Assembly: GCF_004348455.1 (NCBI RefSeq) | Contig: NZ_SMKA01000024.1 | Coordinates: 1-54,218 of the forward strand | Direction: 5' to 3' | DNA: 54,218 nt | Source: Kribbella albertanoniae | GTDB lineage: Bacteria > Actinomycetota > Actinomycetes > Propionibacteriales > Kribbellaceae | Shown here: in pieces, positions 6,066 to 51,903 of the stretch | Position numbering within the stretch: the first letter of the stretch is position 1 | Layout: every line of letters starts with the position of its first letter | The notes under the pieces: generated by a model | Databases searched by the model: none | What the model saw: only the letters and a program-made list of their open reading frames with translations | Told to the model about the DNA's origin: nothing | Program-made: the position numbers and the translations under genes

Positions 6066-7262
6066 TCAAGCGGCTGTTGGGGTTGGGTGTTGGTAGAGGG
6101 TGCGGGTGCGGAGCATGGCGTGGAGGACGTCGATGCGGCGTCGTGCGAGGCAGATGAGTGCGGCGTTGTGTTTCTTGCCGGCGGCTCGTTTGCGGTCGTA
6201 GTAGGCCCGTGAGGTGGGGTCGGACAGTGCTGCGAACGCGGCGAGGAAGAAGGCTCGCTTGAGCTGTTTGTTCCCGCCCCGGCTGGGGTGCTCGCCACGG
6301 ATCGAGGTGCCGGAGCGGCGGGTCACGGGCGCGAGTCCGGCGTAGGCGGCGAGGTGTCCGGAGGTGGGGAACGCGGTGCCGTCGCCGACCTCGAGGAGAA
6401 TCCGTGCTCCGGTCCTGACGCCGATCCCCGGCACCGAGGTCAGGACCTTGGAAAGAGGGTGCGCATCGAGCATCTCCTCGATCTGCCGGGCGGCATCAGC
6501 TCGCTGGGTCAGCAGCCCGGCGAGGGTGGTGGCGAGCTGGGGCAGGACGAGCTCGGCAGCGCGGGTGCCGGGCACGGTGACGGTCTGTTCGGTCAGCGCC
6601 TGCTCGATCGCGTCGACAAGCTTGGCGTATGAGCGGGGAGCCCGGGGCTTGGTGGCGGCGACCAGCTGCCGTCGCGTCGCGGTGGCGAGTCCTTGAGGGC
6701 CGCCGAAGCGGGTCAGCAGTTCGAGCACGGCGGGGTGCTGGACCTTCGGGCCTAGCGCCCGTTCCAGCGCTGGGTGTATCTGGGTCAGCAGGCCGCGGAT
6801 GCGGTTGCTGACCCGGGTGACCTCGCCGGCCAGGTCGTCGTCGTAGCCGACGATGACCTGCAGGTCGGCCAAGGCATCGTCGTCGGTGCCGACCCGGCGC
6901 AGCGTATGCGGCATCGACCGGGCGGCTTCGGCGATGATGTAGGCATCACGCGCGTCGGTCTTGGCGTTGCCCGGGTGCAGGTCCGCGATCCGGCGCATCG
7001 CCAGCCCGGGCAGGTAGGCCACGTCGATACCCAGCTCGCGGGCCACCGTGACCGCCAGCGCTCCGATCGAGGCCGGCTGGTCGACGACCACCAGCACGGA
7101 ACCGCGGACCGACAGCGCCTCGAACACCGCGCGGATCTTCGCCTCCGACTGCGGCAGCACCTTGTCGTGGACCCGCTGGCCGTCCGGGTCCAAGCCGCAG
7201 GCATGGTGCTCCTCCTTGCCCACATCCAGACCCAGGAACACGGCGTACTCGCGACGGCCCAC
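6066..7262 (-). CDS. IS110-family transposase (DEDD recombinase), element A
   Basis: 398 residues; GTG start at 7262 after GGAGG (7266-7270 on the complementary strand). The N-terminal RuvC-like DEDD domain has D13 (GLDVGKEEH), D103 and D106 (KTDARDA). The second acidic position is Asp61 (VVVDQPASIGA) rather than the more usual Glu. A central coiled region is followed by the C-terminal Tnp domain (LTSVPGIGVRTGARIL; LAAYAGLAP; SGTSIRGE; GGNKQLKRAFF), which in this family carries the catalytic serine. Length matches the family and no frameshift is seen, so it may be active. It belongs to element A only; the other transposase in the window is clearly diverged. Confidence 0.93.
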   Translation of the reverse strand: MGRREYAVFLGLDVGKEEHHACGLDPDGQRVHDKVLPQSEAKIRAVFEALSVRGSVLVVVDQPASIGALAVTVARELGIDVAYLPGLAMRRIADLHPGNAKTDARDAYIIAEAARSMPHTLRRVGTDDDALADLQVIVGYDDDLAGEVTRVSNRIRGLLTQIHPALERALGPKVQHPAVLELLTRFGGPQGLATATRRQLVAATKPRAPRSYAKLVDAIEQALTEQTVTVPGTRAAELVLPQLATTLAGLLTQRADAARQIEEMLDAHPLSKVLTSVPGIGVRTGARILLEVGDGTAFPTSGHLAAYAGLAPVTRRSGTSIRGEHPSRGGNKQLKRAFFLAAFAALSDPTSRAYYDRKRAAGKKHNAALICLARRRIDVLHAMLRTRTLYQHPTPTAA

Positions 7263-7738: not shown

Positions 7739-8115
7739 CACCTTGTGCACCCACCAACCACCCGACCACCCGCCCGGATGGTCGAACCGTGCTCAAGGTC
7801 GGGCGGGCGGCTCACCTTGGGCGCCCGTCGACCAGGTTCTGAGTGGGTGGATGGTCGAGTCGTGCTCAACGTCGTACCGGTTCGCCTTGGGCGCCCGTCG
7901 ACCAGGTTCCGAGTGGGTGGATGGTCGAGCTGTGCTCAACGTCGTACCGACTCACCTTGGGCGCCCGTCGACCACGTTCCGAGCAGATGGATGGCTGAGC
8001 CGTGCTCAAGGTCGGGCGGGCGGTTCACCTTGGGCGCCCGTCGACCACGTTCCGAGCGGGTGGGTGGTCGAGCCGTGCTCAAGGTCGGGCCGGCGGCTCA
8101 CCTTGGGCACCCGTC
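7739..8115. repeat. Tandem array of about six 70-74-bp units
   Basis: Units start with C(A/G)CCTTG at 7739, 7813, 7883, 7953, 8026 and 8099, so periods are 74, 70, 70, 73 and 73 bp. Each unit holds a CACCTTGGGCGCCCGTCGACCA-like segment and a GTGCTCAAGGTCG or GTGCTCAACGTCG segment. In the less diverged copies these form the inverted pair ACCTTGAGCAC / GTGCTCAAGGT. The last unit is broken by IS110 element B, and its continuation lies at 9427-9552. Open frames cross the array only because the repeats lack stops; there is no sign of translation. Confidence 0.85.
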
Positions 8116-8133
8116 AACAGTGATGATGTGGGT

Positions 8134-8287
8134 GTGGCTCCGCAGCGGCCGTCCTGACTCACCCTTCAACTGACTTCGGGTCTTCGTCTGGATCTGTCGG
8201 TCGGCTTGCTGCGGAGCCACTGCACTCACCGGACCAGAGGATTCGTGACTTCATAGGAGCCTGTGCCAGCAGGCACCCATCACTGTT
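8134..8287 (+). ncRNA. Putative bridge RNA of IS110 element B
   Basis: A perfect 13-bp stem (GTGGCTCCGCAGC 8134-8146 with GCTGCGGAGCCAC 8208-8220) encloses a 61-nt loop. Inside it, CACCCTTCAAC (8160-8170) matches the sequence across the left junction, CACCCGTCAAC (8108-8118), at 10 of 11 positions. Further on, ATAGGAGC (8253-8260) repeats the element's 3' terminus (9416-9423). A small hairpin follows (GTGCC-AGCA-GGCAC, 8263-8276), then CATCACTGTT (8278-8287), the exact reverse complement of AACAGTGATG, the first ten bases of the element. Target loop, then donor loop with left (identical) and right (complementary) guides, is the arrangement known for IS110 bridge RNAs. RNA ends and expression are not shown. 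Confidence 0.68.
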
Positions 8288-8351
8288 CTGTCCGCTTGCC
8301 TCGGCTGGTGCGTGCCGCCCTAGCCCTAGCAAGAGGACGGCAACAACAACG

Positions 8352-9410
8352 ATGACACGCGAAAACACCCAGCTCCAGTCCACGGTCACCGGCGGTGTCG
8401 ACACCCACCGAGACACCCACACCGCCGCCGTGATCGACAGCGTCGGCCGGCTCCTGGGTCATCGGATGTTCCCCGCGACAACACCGGGATACCGCGACCT
8501 GCTGGCCTGGCTGAACAGCTTCGGGACACTGCTGAAAGTCGGCGTGGAAGGAACCGGCGCCTACGGCCACGGCCTGACCAGATACCTCACCAGCCAAGGC
8601 ATAAAGGTGATCGAGGTCGACCGACCCGACCGCAAAACCCGCCGATCCGCCGGAAAATCCGACCCCCTCGACGCCGAAGCAGCAGCCCGGTCCGCACTGT
8701 CCGGGAATCGCACCGGAACACCAAAAATCCGCACCGGCCACATCGAAGCACTACGCAACCTGCGAGTCGCCCGCCGCAGCGCGATCACCCACCGCGCCGA
8801 CTGCGTCCGCAGAATGAAATCACTCATCATCACCGCACCCGACCAGCTCCGCGACCAGCTCCGACGCCTCACCATCGCGCAACTCATCAAAACCTGCACC
8901 GCGCTGCGCCCCGACACCACCCAAGCAGCCGACCCCGCCCAAGCCGCCAAGATCGCACTCCGCAGCCTCGCGCGCCGCTACCGACACCTCAGCGACGAGA
9001 TCACCGACCTCGACGCCCTCATCACCCCACTCACCCACGCCGCCAACCCCGACCTGCTCAAACTCCACAGCGTCGGCCCGGACAGCGCCGGCCAACTCCT
9101 CGTCACAGCCGGCCAAAACACCGACCGCCTCCGCTCCGAAGCCGCCTTCGCCATGCTCTGCGGCGTCGCCCCCATCCCCGCATCCTCAGGCCAAACACGC
9201 CGCTACCGCCTCAACCCCGGCGGCGACCGCCAAGCCAACGCCGCCATCCACCGCATCGTCATCTGCCGCCTGCGCTGGGACCCACGCACCCGCGCCTACC
9301 TCGAACGACGCACCGCCGACGGCCTATCCAAAAAAGACGCCATCCGCTGCCTCAAACGGATCGTCGCACGCGAGATCTACTACGTCCTCACCAAACCACA
9401 GACCACTTGA
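8352..9410 (+). CDS. IS110-family transposase (DEDD recombinase), element B
   Basis: 352 residues, ATG at 8352, with GAGGACGG about 15 bases upstream as a weak ribosome site. DEDD residues are all present: D17 (GVDTHRDTH), E66 (VEGTG), D104 and D107 (KSDPLDAEAAAR). The C-terminal Tnp domain (LLKLHSVGPDSAGQLL; FAMLCGVAPIPASSGQTRR; RQANAAIHRIV) contains the serine-bearing segment and is of full length. The gene appears intact. Codon use is markedly rich in CC-ending codons compared with neighbours, a sign of separate origin. Confidence 0.93.
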   Translation: MTRENTQLQSTVTGGVDTHRDTHTAAVIDSVGRLLGHRMFPATTPGYRDLLAWLNSFGTLLKVGVEGTGAYGHGLTRYLTSQGIKVIEVDRPDRKTRRSAGKSDPLDAEAAARSALSGNRTGTPKIRTGHIEALRNLRVARRSAITHRADCVRRMKSLIITAPDQLRDQLRRLTIAQLIKTCTALRPDTTQAADPAQAAKIALRSLARRYRHLSDEITDLDALITPLTHAANPDLLKLHSVGPDSAGQLLVTAGQNTDRLRSEAAFAMLCGVAPIPASSGQTRRYRLNPGGDRQANAAIHRIVICRLRWDPRTRAYLERRTADGLSKKDAIRCLKRIVAREIYYVLTKPQTT

Positions 9411-9426
9411 CATCTATAGGAGCGTC

Positions 9427-9552
9427 CACGTGATGCCCGCCGGAACGGTCGAGCCGTGCCCAAGGTCGCGCGGCCGGCTCACTTTGAGCGCCCATCAACC
9501 ACGTTCTGGGCGAGCAGGTGACTGACCCGTGCTCAACGTCGTACCGGCGCTG
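9427..9552. repeat. Continuation of the tandem array beyond element B
   Basis: GGTCGAGCCGTGCCCAAGGT and CACTTTGAGCGCCCATCAAC belong to the same unit family as 7739-8115. The stretch ends GTGCTCAACGTCGTACCGGC, the same ending as the repeat cluster near 52090. Together with the left part it shows that element B split a single array. Confidence 0.8.
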
Positions 9553-51548: not shown

Positions 51549-51877
51549 CGTATCCGGATCGGCAGACCTGCACGGCCGACGATCTGCTGGAGCAGCCCGC
51601 CAAGGCCGGCTAGTTAAACCCGCCTCTCCGTATCCCCGGTCCCCGCTGCCTCCACGACCGAAGAACCCCAGCCATTTCGCTGGTTAGCCACCGGCGTTGG
51701 GGGTTCTGCACCCTTAACCAGAGTACAGAACCCCTAATCTGCCTGCCCAGCCAGCCAAATCGGGATCCGCCCCAAACCGGTTCGGGGAGGATCCGCGACG
51801 GATTCGGGGGGTGTCCTCCCCACATCACCTTGCGGACGGTGCAATCCCTCCCCGCATCACCTTGCGGACGGTGCCAT
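51549..51877. repeat. Intergenic repeat cluster, left part
   Basis: No gene seen. GGGGTTCTG (51700-51708) pairs with CAGAACCCC (51726-51734). An imperfect relative of the 26-bp palindrome lies at 51769-51790 (GCCCCAAACCGGTTCGGGGAGG less one). GGGGGGTGTCCTCCCCACAT (51806-51825) is the uninterrupted form of the sequence split by IS110 element A. CCCCACATCACCTTGCGGAC is then repeated with small changes at about 51851. Confidence 0.75.
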
Positions 51878-51903
51878 CCCTCCCCAAACCGGTTTGGGGA
51901 GGG
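51878..51903. repeat. 26-bp perfect palindrome, second copy
   Basis: CCCTCCCCAAACC followed directly by its reverse complement, identical to 7531-7556. Capable of forming a 13-bp stem in DNA or a nearly loopless RNA hairpin. Confidence 0.85.

What the first reader, a model, noticed from the sequence alone, without database searches (positions are those of the whole stretch)
8116..9426. IS110 element B carries a leader RNA whose donor guides match both ends of the element
The non-coding left end forms a 13-bp stem with a 61-nt loop, then shows ATAGGAGC (8253-8260), identical to the element's 3' terminus after the transposase stop (9416-9423). A small hairpin follows, then CATCACTGTT (8278-8287), the exact reverse complement of the element's first ten bases (AACAGTGATG, 8116-8125). 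A chance 10-base match in a leader of about 230 nt is unlikely. One identical half and one complementary half either side of a hairpin is how the donor-binding loop of published IS110 bridge RNAs is built.
Basis: partly seen in the sequence, partly recalled or inferred. Interest (0 to 1): 0.85.

Follow-up and report, generated by a model that had tools for sequence, protein, structure and literature searches.

The report
IS110 element with its bridge RNA
A small bacterial jumping gene carries what looks like a guide RNA whose two loops match the element's own ends and the DNA site it sits in; this is a new example of the known bridge-RNA mechanism, with an unusual detail at the point where the two DNAs are joined.

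Summary
Confirmed, extended and slightly corrected. By sequence evidence the leader of this IS110 element encodes a bridge RNA. Across 33 related element types the 9-nt left target guide matches each element's own left flank (6.43 of 7 non-core bases, against 3.33 for shuffled pairings). Of 27 guides outside the training set found by covariance model, 13 match at 6 or 7 of 7, with 0.15 expected. The donor guide co-varies with the left end, and helices show compensatory changes. One clade feature stands out: target and donor share only one core base (mostly AC against TC), and the RNA bases facing core position 8 do not pair with their own substrate (0 of 33; 0 of 25) but with the incoming strand (33 of 33, one by wobble; 25 of 25). 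New member of a known kind. No RNA or activity was tested.

The parts
8119..9426 (+). IS110-group element (1308 bp): left end, bridge RNA, recombinase, right end
   Evidence: Boundaries from uninterrupted sites of a relative, multi-copy relatives and adjacent uninterrupted repeats
8110..8118 (+). Left target (LT) CCCGTCAAC, last base of the left flank = core position 9
   Evidence: matches the left target guide at 8 of 9
9427..9428 (+). Right target (RT) CA; CACGTG continues the repeat unit
   Evidence: pairs with RTG bases 8189-8190
8119..8125 (+). Right donor (RD) AGTGATG, first bases of the element
   Evidence: Positions 10 and 12 co-vary with RDG in 33 types
9416..9426 (+). Left donor (LD) ATAGGAGC+GTC, last bases of the element; donor core TC = 9425-9426
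8134..8310 (+). Predicted bridge RNA, about 177 nt (target-binding loop then donor-binding loop)
   Evidence: Consensus structure, pair counts, covariance model hit 8119-8310, 172.7 bits, the only hit in the window at E up to 1 (the window is one of the model's own sequences); start inferred from the junction promoter; not observed as RNA
8134..8220 (+). Target-binding loop: outer stem 8134-8146/8208-8220, inner stem 8154-8158/8196-8200, hairpin 8172-8174/8180-8182
8162..8170 (+). Left target guide (LTG) CCCTTCAAC, 8 of 9 identical to 8110-8118
8189..8193 (+). Right target guide (RTG): TG pairs RT 9427-9428; G pairs core C; A and T pair donor T 9425 and (wobble) G 9424 after exchange
8228..8309 (+). 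Donor-binding loop: outer stem 8228-8232/8305-8309, inner stem 8244-8249/8290-8294, hairpin within 8261-8277
8253..8260 (+). Left donor guide (LDG) ATAGGAGC, identical to 9416-9423
8278..8284 (+). Right donor guide (RDG) CATCACT, reverse complement of 8119-8125
8285..8287 (+). Core and handshake bases GTT, reverse complement of target bases AAC 8116-8118
   Evidence: Co-variation with target position 7: A-T 8, G-C 24, C-C 1 types; position 8
8352..9410 (+). IS110 recombinase, 352 aa; residues D17, E66, D104, D107, S279
9407..9412 (+). -35-like TTGACA overlapping the stop codon; in the circle it lies 17 bp from -10-like GATGAT (8122-8127)
   Evidence: TTGAC in 24 of 25 types with a right end, one copy scored per type; 17-bp spacing in 20 of those 24
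7776..8115 (+). About 70-nt tandem repeats (dispersed in the genome) into which the element is inserted

Best explanation
It is an IS110-group insertion sequence with a bridge RNA in its left end. Steps: (1) the element leaves as a circle, joining its right end to its left end, which builds a promoter (TTGACA - 17 bp - GATGAT) for the leader RNA; (2) the RNA binds the recombinase; (3) the first loop reads the target (LTG 9 nt on the bottom strand, RTG about 2 nt plus core on the top strand) and the second loop reads the circle junction (LDG, RDG); (4) top strands are cut after the shared C and exchanged; (5) RNA bases facing positions 7-8 pair with the incoming strand of the other DNA and so favour the exchange. 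Shown here by sequence: anatomy, structure conservation, guide-end and guide-target co-variation, boundaries, invariant catalytic residues. Inferred from the IS621 work: RNA expression, circle, RNA binding, chemistry and order of steps.
For: LTG against own left flank: 33 types, mean 6.43 of 7, shuffled 3.33 (sd 0.22, highest of 10000 = 4.46); window guide against its own flank 8 of 9, next best type 6 of 9. Guides outside the training set: 27, mean 4.67 against 2.23, highest of 10000 shuffles 3.30. RTG: RT positions 10-12 mean 2.01 of 3 against 1.05, 0 of 10000 shuffles reach it, 25 types (where they are numbered 13-15). RDG co-varies at donor positions 10 and 12, 33 of 33. Structure: 96.3% of cells paired against 81.3% shuffled and 34.6-44.7% slid; 26 of 40 pairs with changes on both sides. 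Empty sites 4 of 4. Recombinase: Pfam PF01548 and PF02371, NCBIfam NF033542 'IS110 family RNA-guided transposase' 176.3 bits over cut-off 140, profile match to IS621 8wt6, E 1.8e-22, D17 E66 D104 D107 S279 invariant in 24 of 24 aligned proteins.
Against: No transcript or reaction was observed. Only one full copy in the own genome, a draft of 593 contigs, so mobility in this host is not shown. The window's LTG has one mismatch (T for G at target position 4) and its RTG matches only two non-core bases. LDG varies little among relatives, so its co-variation rests on few types, and one type (L051) disagrees. Donor position 15 does not co-vary. Where the target has C at position 7 the RDG base does not fit: 1 of 33 types and 5 of the 8 copies set aside. 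Neither Rfam search gave a plausible family, but Rfam may hold no bridge RNA.
Confidence: 0.95

Rival explanations
1. The leader is a regulatory RNA or attenuator of transposase expression, and the matches to the ends are by-products of shared ancestry.
For: The leader lies directly upstream of the gene and folds strongly (z -4.39). Small RNAs are mentioned as possible regulators for ISPpu9 in PMC11208160 (section 5 read).
Against: Shared ancestry cannot make the loop match host DNA outside the element, which differs between types.
Confidence: 0.02
2. Ends are recognised by the protein alone; the RNA guides only target choice and LDG/RDG are copies of protein-binding sites.
For: ATAGGAGC is nearly constant among relatives: 21 of the 25 types with a readable right end have TAGGAGC in both places.
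Against: RDG co-varies with the left end at two positions in 33 of 33 types; GGGGC guide with GGGGC end in 3 of 3 types.
Confidence: 0.06
3. The system is genuine but this copy is a relic that no longer moves.
For: Single copy; LTG mismatch; donor GTC where 45 of 46 other class-A copies with a right end have ATC. Five copies of a more distant relative (L128-L132) also have GTC, with a guide that reads GAC instead of GAT (by eye).
Against: Intact 352-aa frame, all five catalytic residues kept, RNA model score within the range of multi-copy relatives.
Confidence: 0.25

Closest known systems
IS621 bridge RNA system (E. coli; Durrant 2024 PMC11208160, Hiraizumi 2024 PMC11208158)
   Same: RNA in the left end, two internal loops in the order target then donor, 9-nt LTG on the bottom strand, short RTG, LDG/RDG, handshake bases, DEDD + Ser recombinase, promoter formed at the circle junction (predicted here), target in dispersed repeats (REP elements are named in the paper)
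   Different: Target core mostly AC and donor core TC instead of CT in both; no stem-loop found before the target loop; LDG match stops three bases before the cut; recombinase found related to IS621 only at profile level (the single-sequence search gave no IS621 match)
ISEc21 and ISMch6 seekRNA (Siddiquee 2024 PMC11187229; sections 12 and 13 read)
   Same: IS110-type upstream noncoding RNA with bottom-strand then top-strand target match; natural redirection of a relative described; insertion without target duplication
   Different: No donor guide is described in the two sections I read; sequences not compared here
ISAar29 (named in the legend of Extended Data Fig. 10, PMC11208160)
   Same: Listed among six elements with predicted bridge RNA guides; the name suggests Arthrobacter (recalled), where relatives of this element occur
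ISKrh6 (Kocuria, PMC12500396, passages read)
   Same: Actinobacterial IS110 family element drawn with a seekRNA-determining region
   Different: Its authors say that the size estimate may include target bases and needs experiment; not compared here

Membership tests
IS110 family | DEDD RuvC-like domain plus Tnp domain with conserved serine | tested here: met
   PF01548 and PF02371 above cut-off; D17 E66 D104 D107 S279 invariant in 24 of 24 aligned proteins; profile aligned with IS621
IS110 family | Insertion without loss or duplication of target bases | tested here: met
   Uninterrupted sites 4 of 4 with zero gap in a relative; for the window itself only by comparison with neighbouring repeat units
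IS110 group (not IS1111) | Long left end, short right end, RNA in the left end | tested here: met
   Left end 8119-8351 (233 nt), right end 9411-9426 (16 nt); only RNA model hit of the window at E up to 1 lies in the left end
Bridge RNA | Target-binding and donor-binding internal loops with conserved structure | tested here: met
Bridge RNA | Target guides match the occupied target | tested here: met
   window LTG 8 of 9, RTG two non-core bases
Bridge RNA | Donor guides match the element's ends | tested here: met
Bridge RNA | Transcript bound by the recombinase | not testable with these tools
   Needs RNA sequencing and a binding assay
IS621 subgroup | CT core dinucleotide shared by target and donor | tested here: not met
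   Target core AC in 53 of 58 copies, GC 3, AT 2; donor core TC in 46 of 47, TT 1
IS621 subgroup | 5' stem-loop before the target-binding loop | tested here: not met
   No helix before the target loop in the consensus; predicted start lies at the target-loop stem (inference)
IS1111 group | Long right end that carries the RNA | tested here: not met
   Right end 16 nt; RNA on the left
IS1111 group | Subterminal inverted repeats of 7-17 bp | not tested
   The ends were not searched for inverted repeats

The most novel reading that the evidence does not exclude
In this actinobacterial clade the donor and target cores differ on purpose. The RNA bases facing core position 8 (and mostly 7) are complementary only to the incoming partner strand, so pairing is broken before and complete after top-strand exchange: a built-in ratchet, an extension of handshake pairing into the core itself. 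If so, a shared core dinucleotide is not a requirement of bridge recombination.
Probability: 0.6. Interest if true: 0.6.

Novelty: new member of a known kind. Interest (0 to 1): 0.42.

Why it matters
It is a clean, naturally diversified set of predicted bridge RNA systems from actinobacteria, with targets that can be read off the RNA. The swapped core resembles the 'post-handshake' design that favoured strand exchange for IS621, and could inform designs that are driven forward and do not need one common core dinucleotide. The element itself is ordinary in kind.

Tried and rejected
First I placed the core at CA (cut after CA), then the right cut directly after GAGC. Both were rejected: in a relative the left end begins TGTG but the sequence after GGGGC begins ATC, and its uninterrupted sites show ATC to be part of the element. 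An Amycolatopsis palindrome (TGAATGAC|TCATTCA) agrees. The right-target positions were numbered before this correction: its positions 13-15 are RT 10-12.

Selection and hand corrections. 104 loci entered (genome-search loci L004-L006, L009-L011 and L013-L032 were left out, as duplicates or distant); 66 were annotated by motif and 38 dropped for lack of a motif. 8 of the 66 were set aside because their loop geometry differs (L072-L076, L085, L090, L101); their best-placed candidate guide matches the flank at 7 to 9 of 9. 58 copies were collapsed to 33 types; 47 copies in 25 types have a usable right end. Anchors were reset by hand after seeing output for L064, and for L123-L127 (one element) and the outer copy of a tandem duplication in L040. 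In one search I tested 28 of the 30 model hits (window, and L210 as a duplicate of L183, left out); one search had listed 36 places in 28 genomes, of which loci were given for 30. One of the 28 (L185) is identical to training leader L064; its guide was misplaced and counts as a miss, as do other misplaced guides.

A PDB search with the single protein found no IS621; the profile did. Rfam gave only two chance-level matches below gathering score. A plasmid search (1978 records with relatives) was not used further. Structure prediction was not run. Paper searches (titles and abstract starts seen, lists capped) showed me no paper on a bridge RNA of this clade in the held library; most subscription papers are not held.

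Full report
What is there.

Boundaries. Multi-copy relatives give the ends. One relative's element (L123-L127) sits in another IS110 transposase gene: uninterrupted copies of that gene carry both IS110 Pfam domains (2 of 2 scanned; of the 4 uninterrupted sites 3 lie in long frames and 1 in a short one). A pattern allowing 0-9 bases between its flanks found four places in that genome, all with none: CGCAAGAAC directly followed by TACGCCGGCAC. So the three bases ATC after GGGGC belong to the element. By the same logic the window element is 8119-9426, its last three bases being GTC. The window agrees: it is inserted in a tandem array of about 70 nt whose four uninterrupted units before it read CCCGTCGAC|CACGTT (two) or |CAGGTT (two), and one after it CCCATCAAC|CACGTT, while the occupied unit reads CCCGTCAAC|element|CACGTG. 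Similar units are dispersed in the own genome (46 matches of CCCNTCRACCACG against 10 for the reversed control).

Target guides. Its 5' side carries CCCTTCAAC (8162-8170), 8 of 9 identical to the left flank CCCGTCAAC; the next best of 33 types' guides matches that flank at 6 of 9. Over 33 element types (58 copies; selection and hand corrections in Tried and rejected) the seven non-core bases of the guide match the element's own flank at 6.43 on average against 3.33 for shuffled pairings (sd 0.22; highest of 10000, 4.46). Positions 6, 7 and 8 match throughout. The 3' side pairs with the right target at RT 10 and 11 (87% and 73% of cases against 49% and 28% for wrong pairings, 25 types); RT 12 is weaker (41% against 24%, numbering corrected). 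As a further test, a covariance model built from the 33 leaders was run on 197 genomes of the class; 28, the own genome among them, had a match at E 1e-10 or better. Of 28 hits tested (27 distinct guides, none equal to a training guide), 13 of 27 match their flank at 6 or 7 of 7, with 0.15 expected; mean 4.67 against 2.23. One of the 28 is the same leader as a training sequence, misplaced and counted as a miss. I did not check that every model hit has a transposase beside it.

Donor guides. RDG CATCACT pairs with the first seven bases of the element. Where relatives have AGAG instead of AGTG, or TGTG, the guide changes to fit: position 12 in 33 of 33 types, position 10 in 33 of 33. Positions 11, 13, 14 and 16 do not vary in the DNA; position 15 varies and does not follow the guide. 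LDG is nearly constant; GGGGC ends go with GGGGC guides in 3 of 3 types; one type (L051) has TAGGTGC in the leader against ATAGGAGC at the end; 8 types have no readable right end.

Structure. The consensus has a long target-loop stem, a short inner stem, a small hairpin between the guides, and a pseudo-symmetric donor loop. Of 1312 cells 96.3% pair (shuffled 81.3%; slid partners 34.6-44.7%), and 26 of 40 pairs have changes on both sides. The window leader folds 4.4 sd better than shuffles. No helix precedes the target loop, unlike the 5' stem-loop of IS621.

Expression. Joining right end to left end places TTGACA (overlapping the stop codon) 17 bp before GATGAT in the window. TTGAC is found in 24 of 25 types with a right end (one copy each), against 9 of 990 pieces of 24 nt from the transposase genes; spacing is 17 in 20 of 24, 18 in 4. 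A start about 7 nt later falls on the first base of the target-loop stem, giving an RNA of about 177 nt. This is prediction only.

Core and handshake. IS621 has the core CT in both DNAs, and its handshake bases pair with positions 6-7 of the incoming strand (PMC11208158, sections 11 and 12 read). Here the target has A at position 8 in 55 of 58 copies and G in 3, never T, and the donor has T in 47 of 47. The RNA base facing position 8 in RTG mismatches its own target in 33 of 33 types and pairs with the donor in 25 of 25; the one in RDG mismatches its own donor in 25 of 25 and pairs with the target in 33 of 33, one of them by wobble. Position 7 of RDG follows the target (A-T 8, G-C 24, C-C 1). 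Against this: in the 8 copies set aside, 5 have C at target position 7 opposite C in RDG; 1 has G opposite C, and the 2 Paractinoplanes copies (target ...CACGT, RDG ...ACGTG) fit over five target positions (by eye). A more distant relative (L128-L132) has donor GTC and a guide ending GAC instead of GAT (by eye), which would be the matching change on the other loop. I take this as published handshake pairing extended into the core. Durrant et al. [quoted passage not shown]

Unexplained. In IS621, by my reading of its numbering, bottom strands are cut about four positions away from the top-strand cut, which should leave mixed duplex at positions 6-9 and hence both versions after replication. In these genomes the left junction never carries the donor base at position 8 (0 of 58) and the right never the target base (0 of 47). 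Biased repair, a different bottom cut, or loss of the other product could explain it.

Known or new. PMC11208160 (abstract, passages, sections 5 and 12 read) reports predicted bridge RNAs in 85.7% of IS110s and 93.0% of IS1111s in its set; PMC11187229 (abstract, sections 12 and 13 read; [quoted passage not shown] NCBI's family name already says 'RNA-guided'. Hence: new member of a known kind, with a clade-specific core arrangement worth testing.

Noticed in passing
window 6066-7262 (minus strand) and flanks to about 7494: A second IS110 element with a 398-aa recombinase, two copies in the own genome (98% identical protein). Its leader holds GATAGGGAC, sharing ATAGGGAC with its right end, and a segment resembling the reverse complement of its left end, so it probably has its own bridge RNA; model R1 does not find one there.
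   Followed up: partly
L052 592-1641; L035, L063, L088: In L052 and L035 the leader is split beside the left donor guide (two model hits each); in L052 the insert encodes another IS110 protein of 349 aa on the minus strand. L063 and L088 show the same junction sequence and only the donor-loop part. IS110 elements seem to insert into each other's guide RNA region.
   Followed up: partly
L123-L127: An IS110 element that sits in the transposase gene of a different IS110 element; its guide, re-anchored by hand, matches the target at 9 of 9 bases, with four uninterrupted sites in the same genome.
   Followed up: yes
window 7776-8115 and 9427-9503: Dispersed tandem repeats of about 70 nt, many loci in the own genome and weak matches in 5 other genomes of the genus among 38 other genomes searched; nature unknown.
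   Followed up: partly
window 8117-8118 and 9425-9426, and relatives: Position 8 never shows the exchanged base at either junction (0 of 58 left, 0 of 47 right), although a staggered exchange should give both.
   Followed up: no
window 51815-51886: Tandem repeat of 32 nt, 2.2 copies.
   Followed up: no
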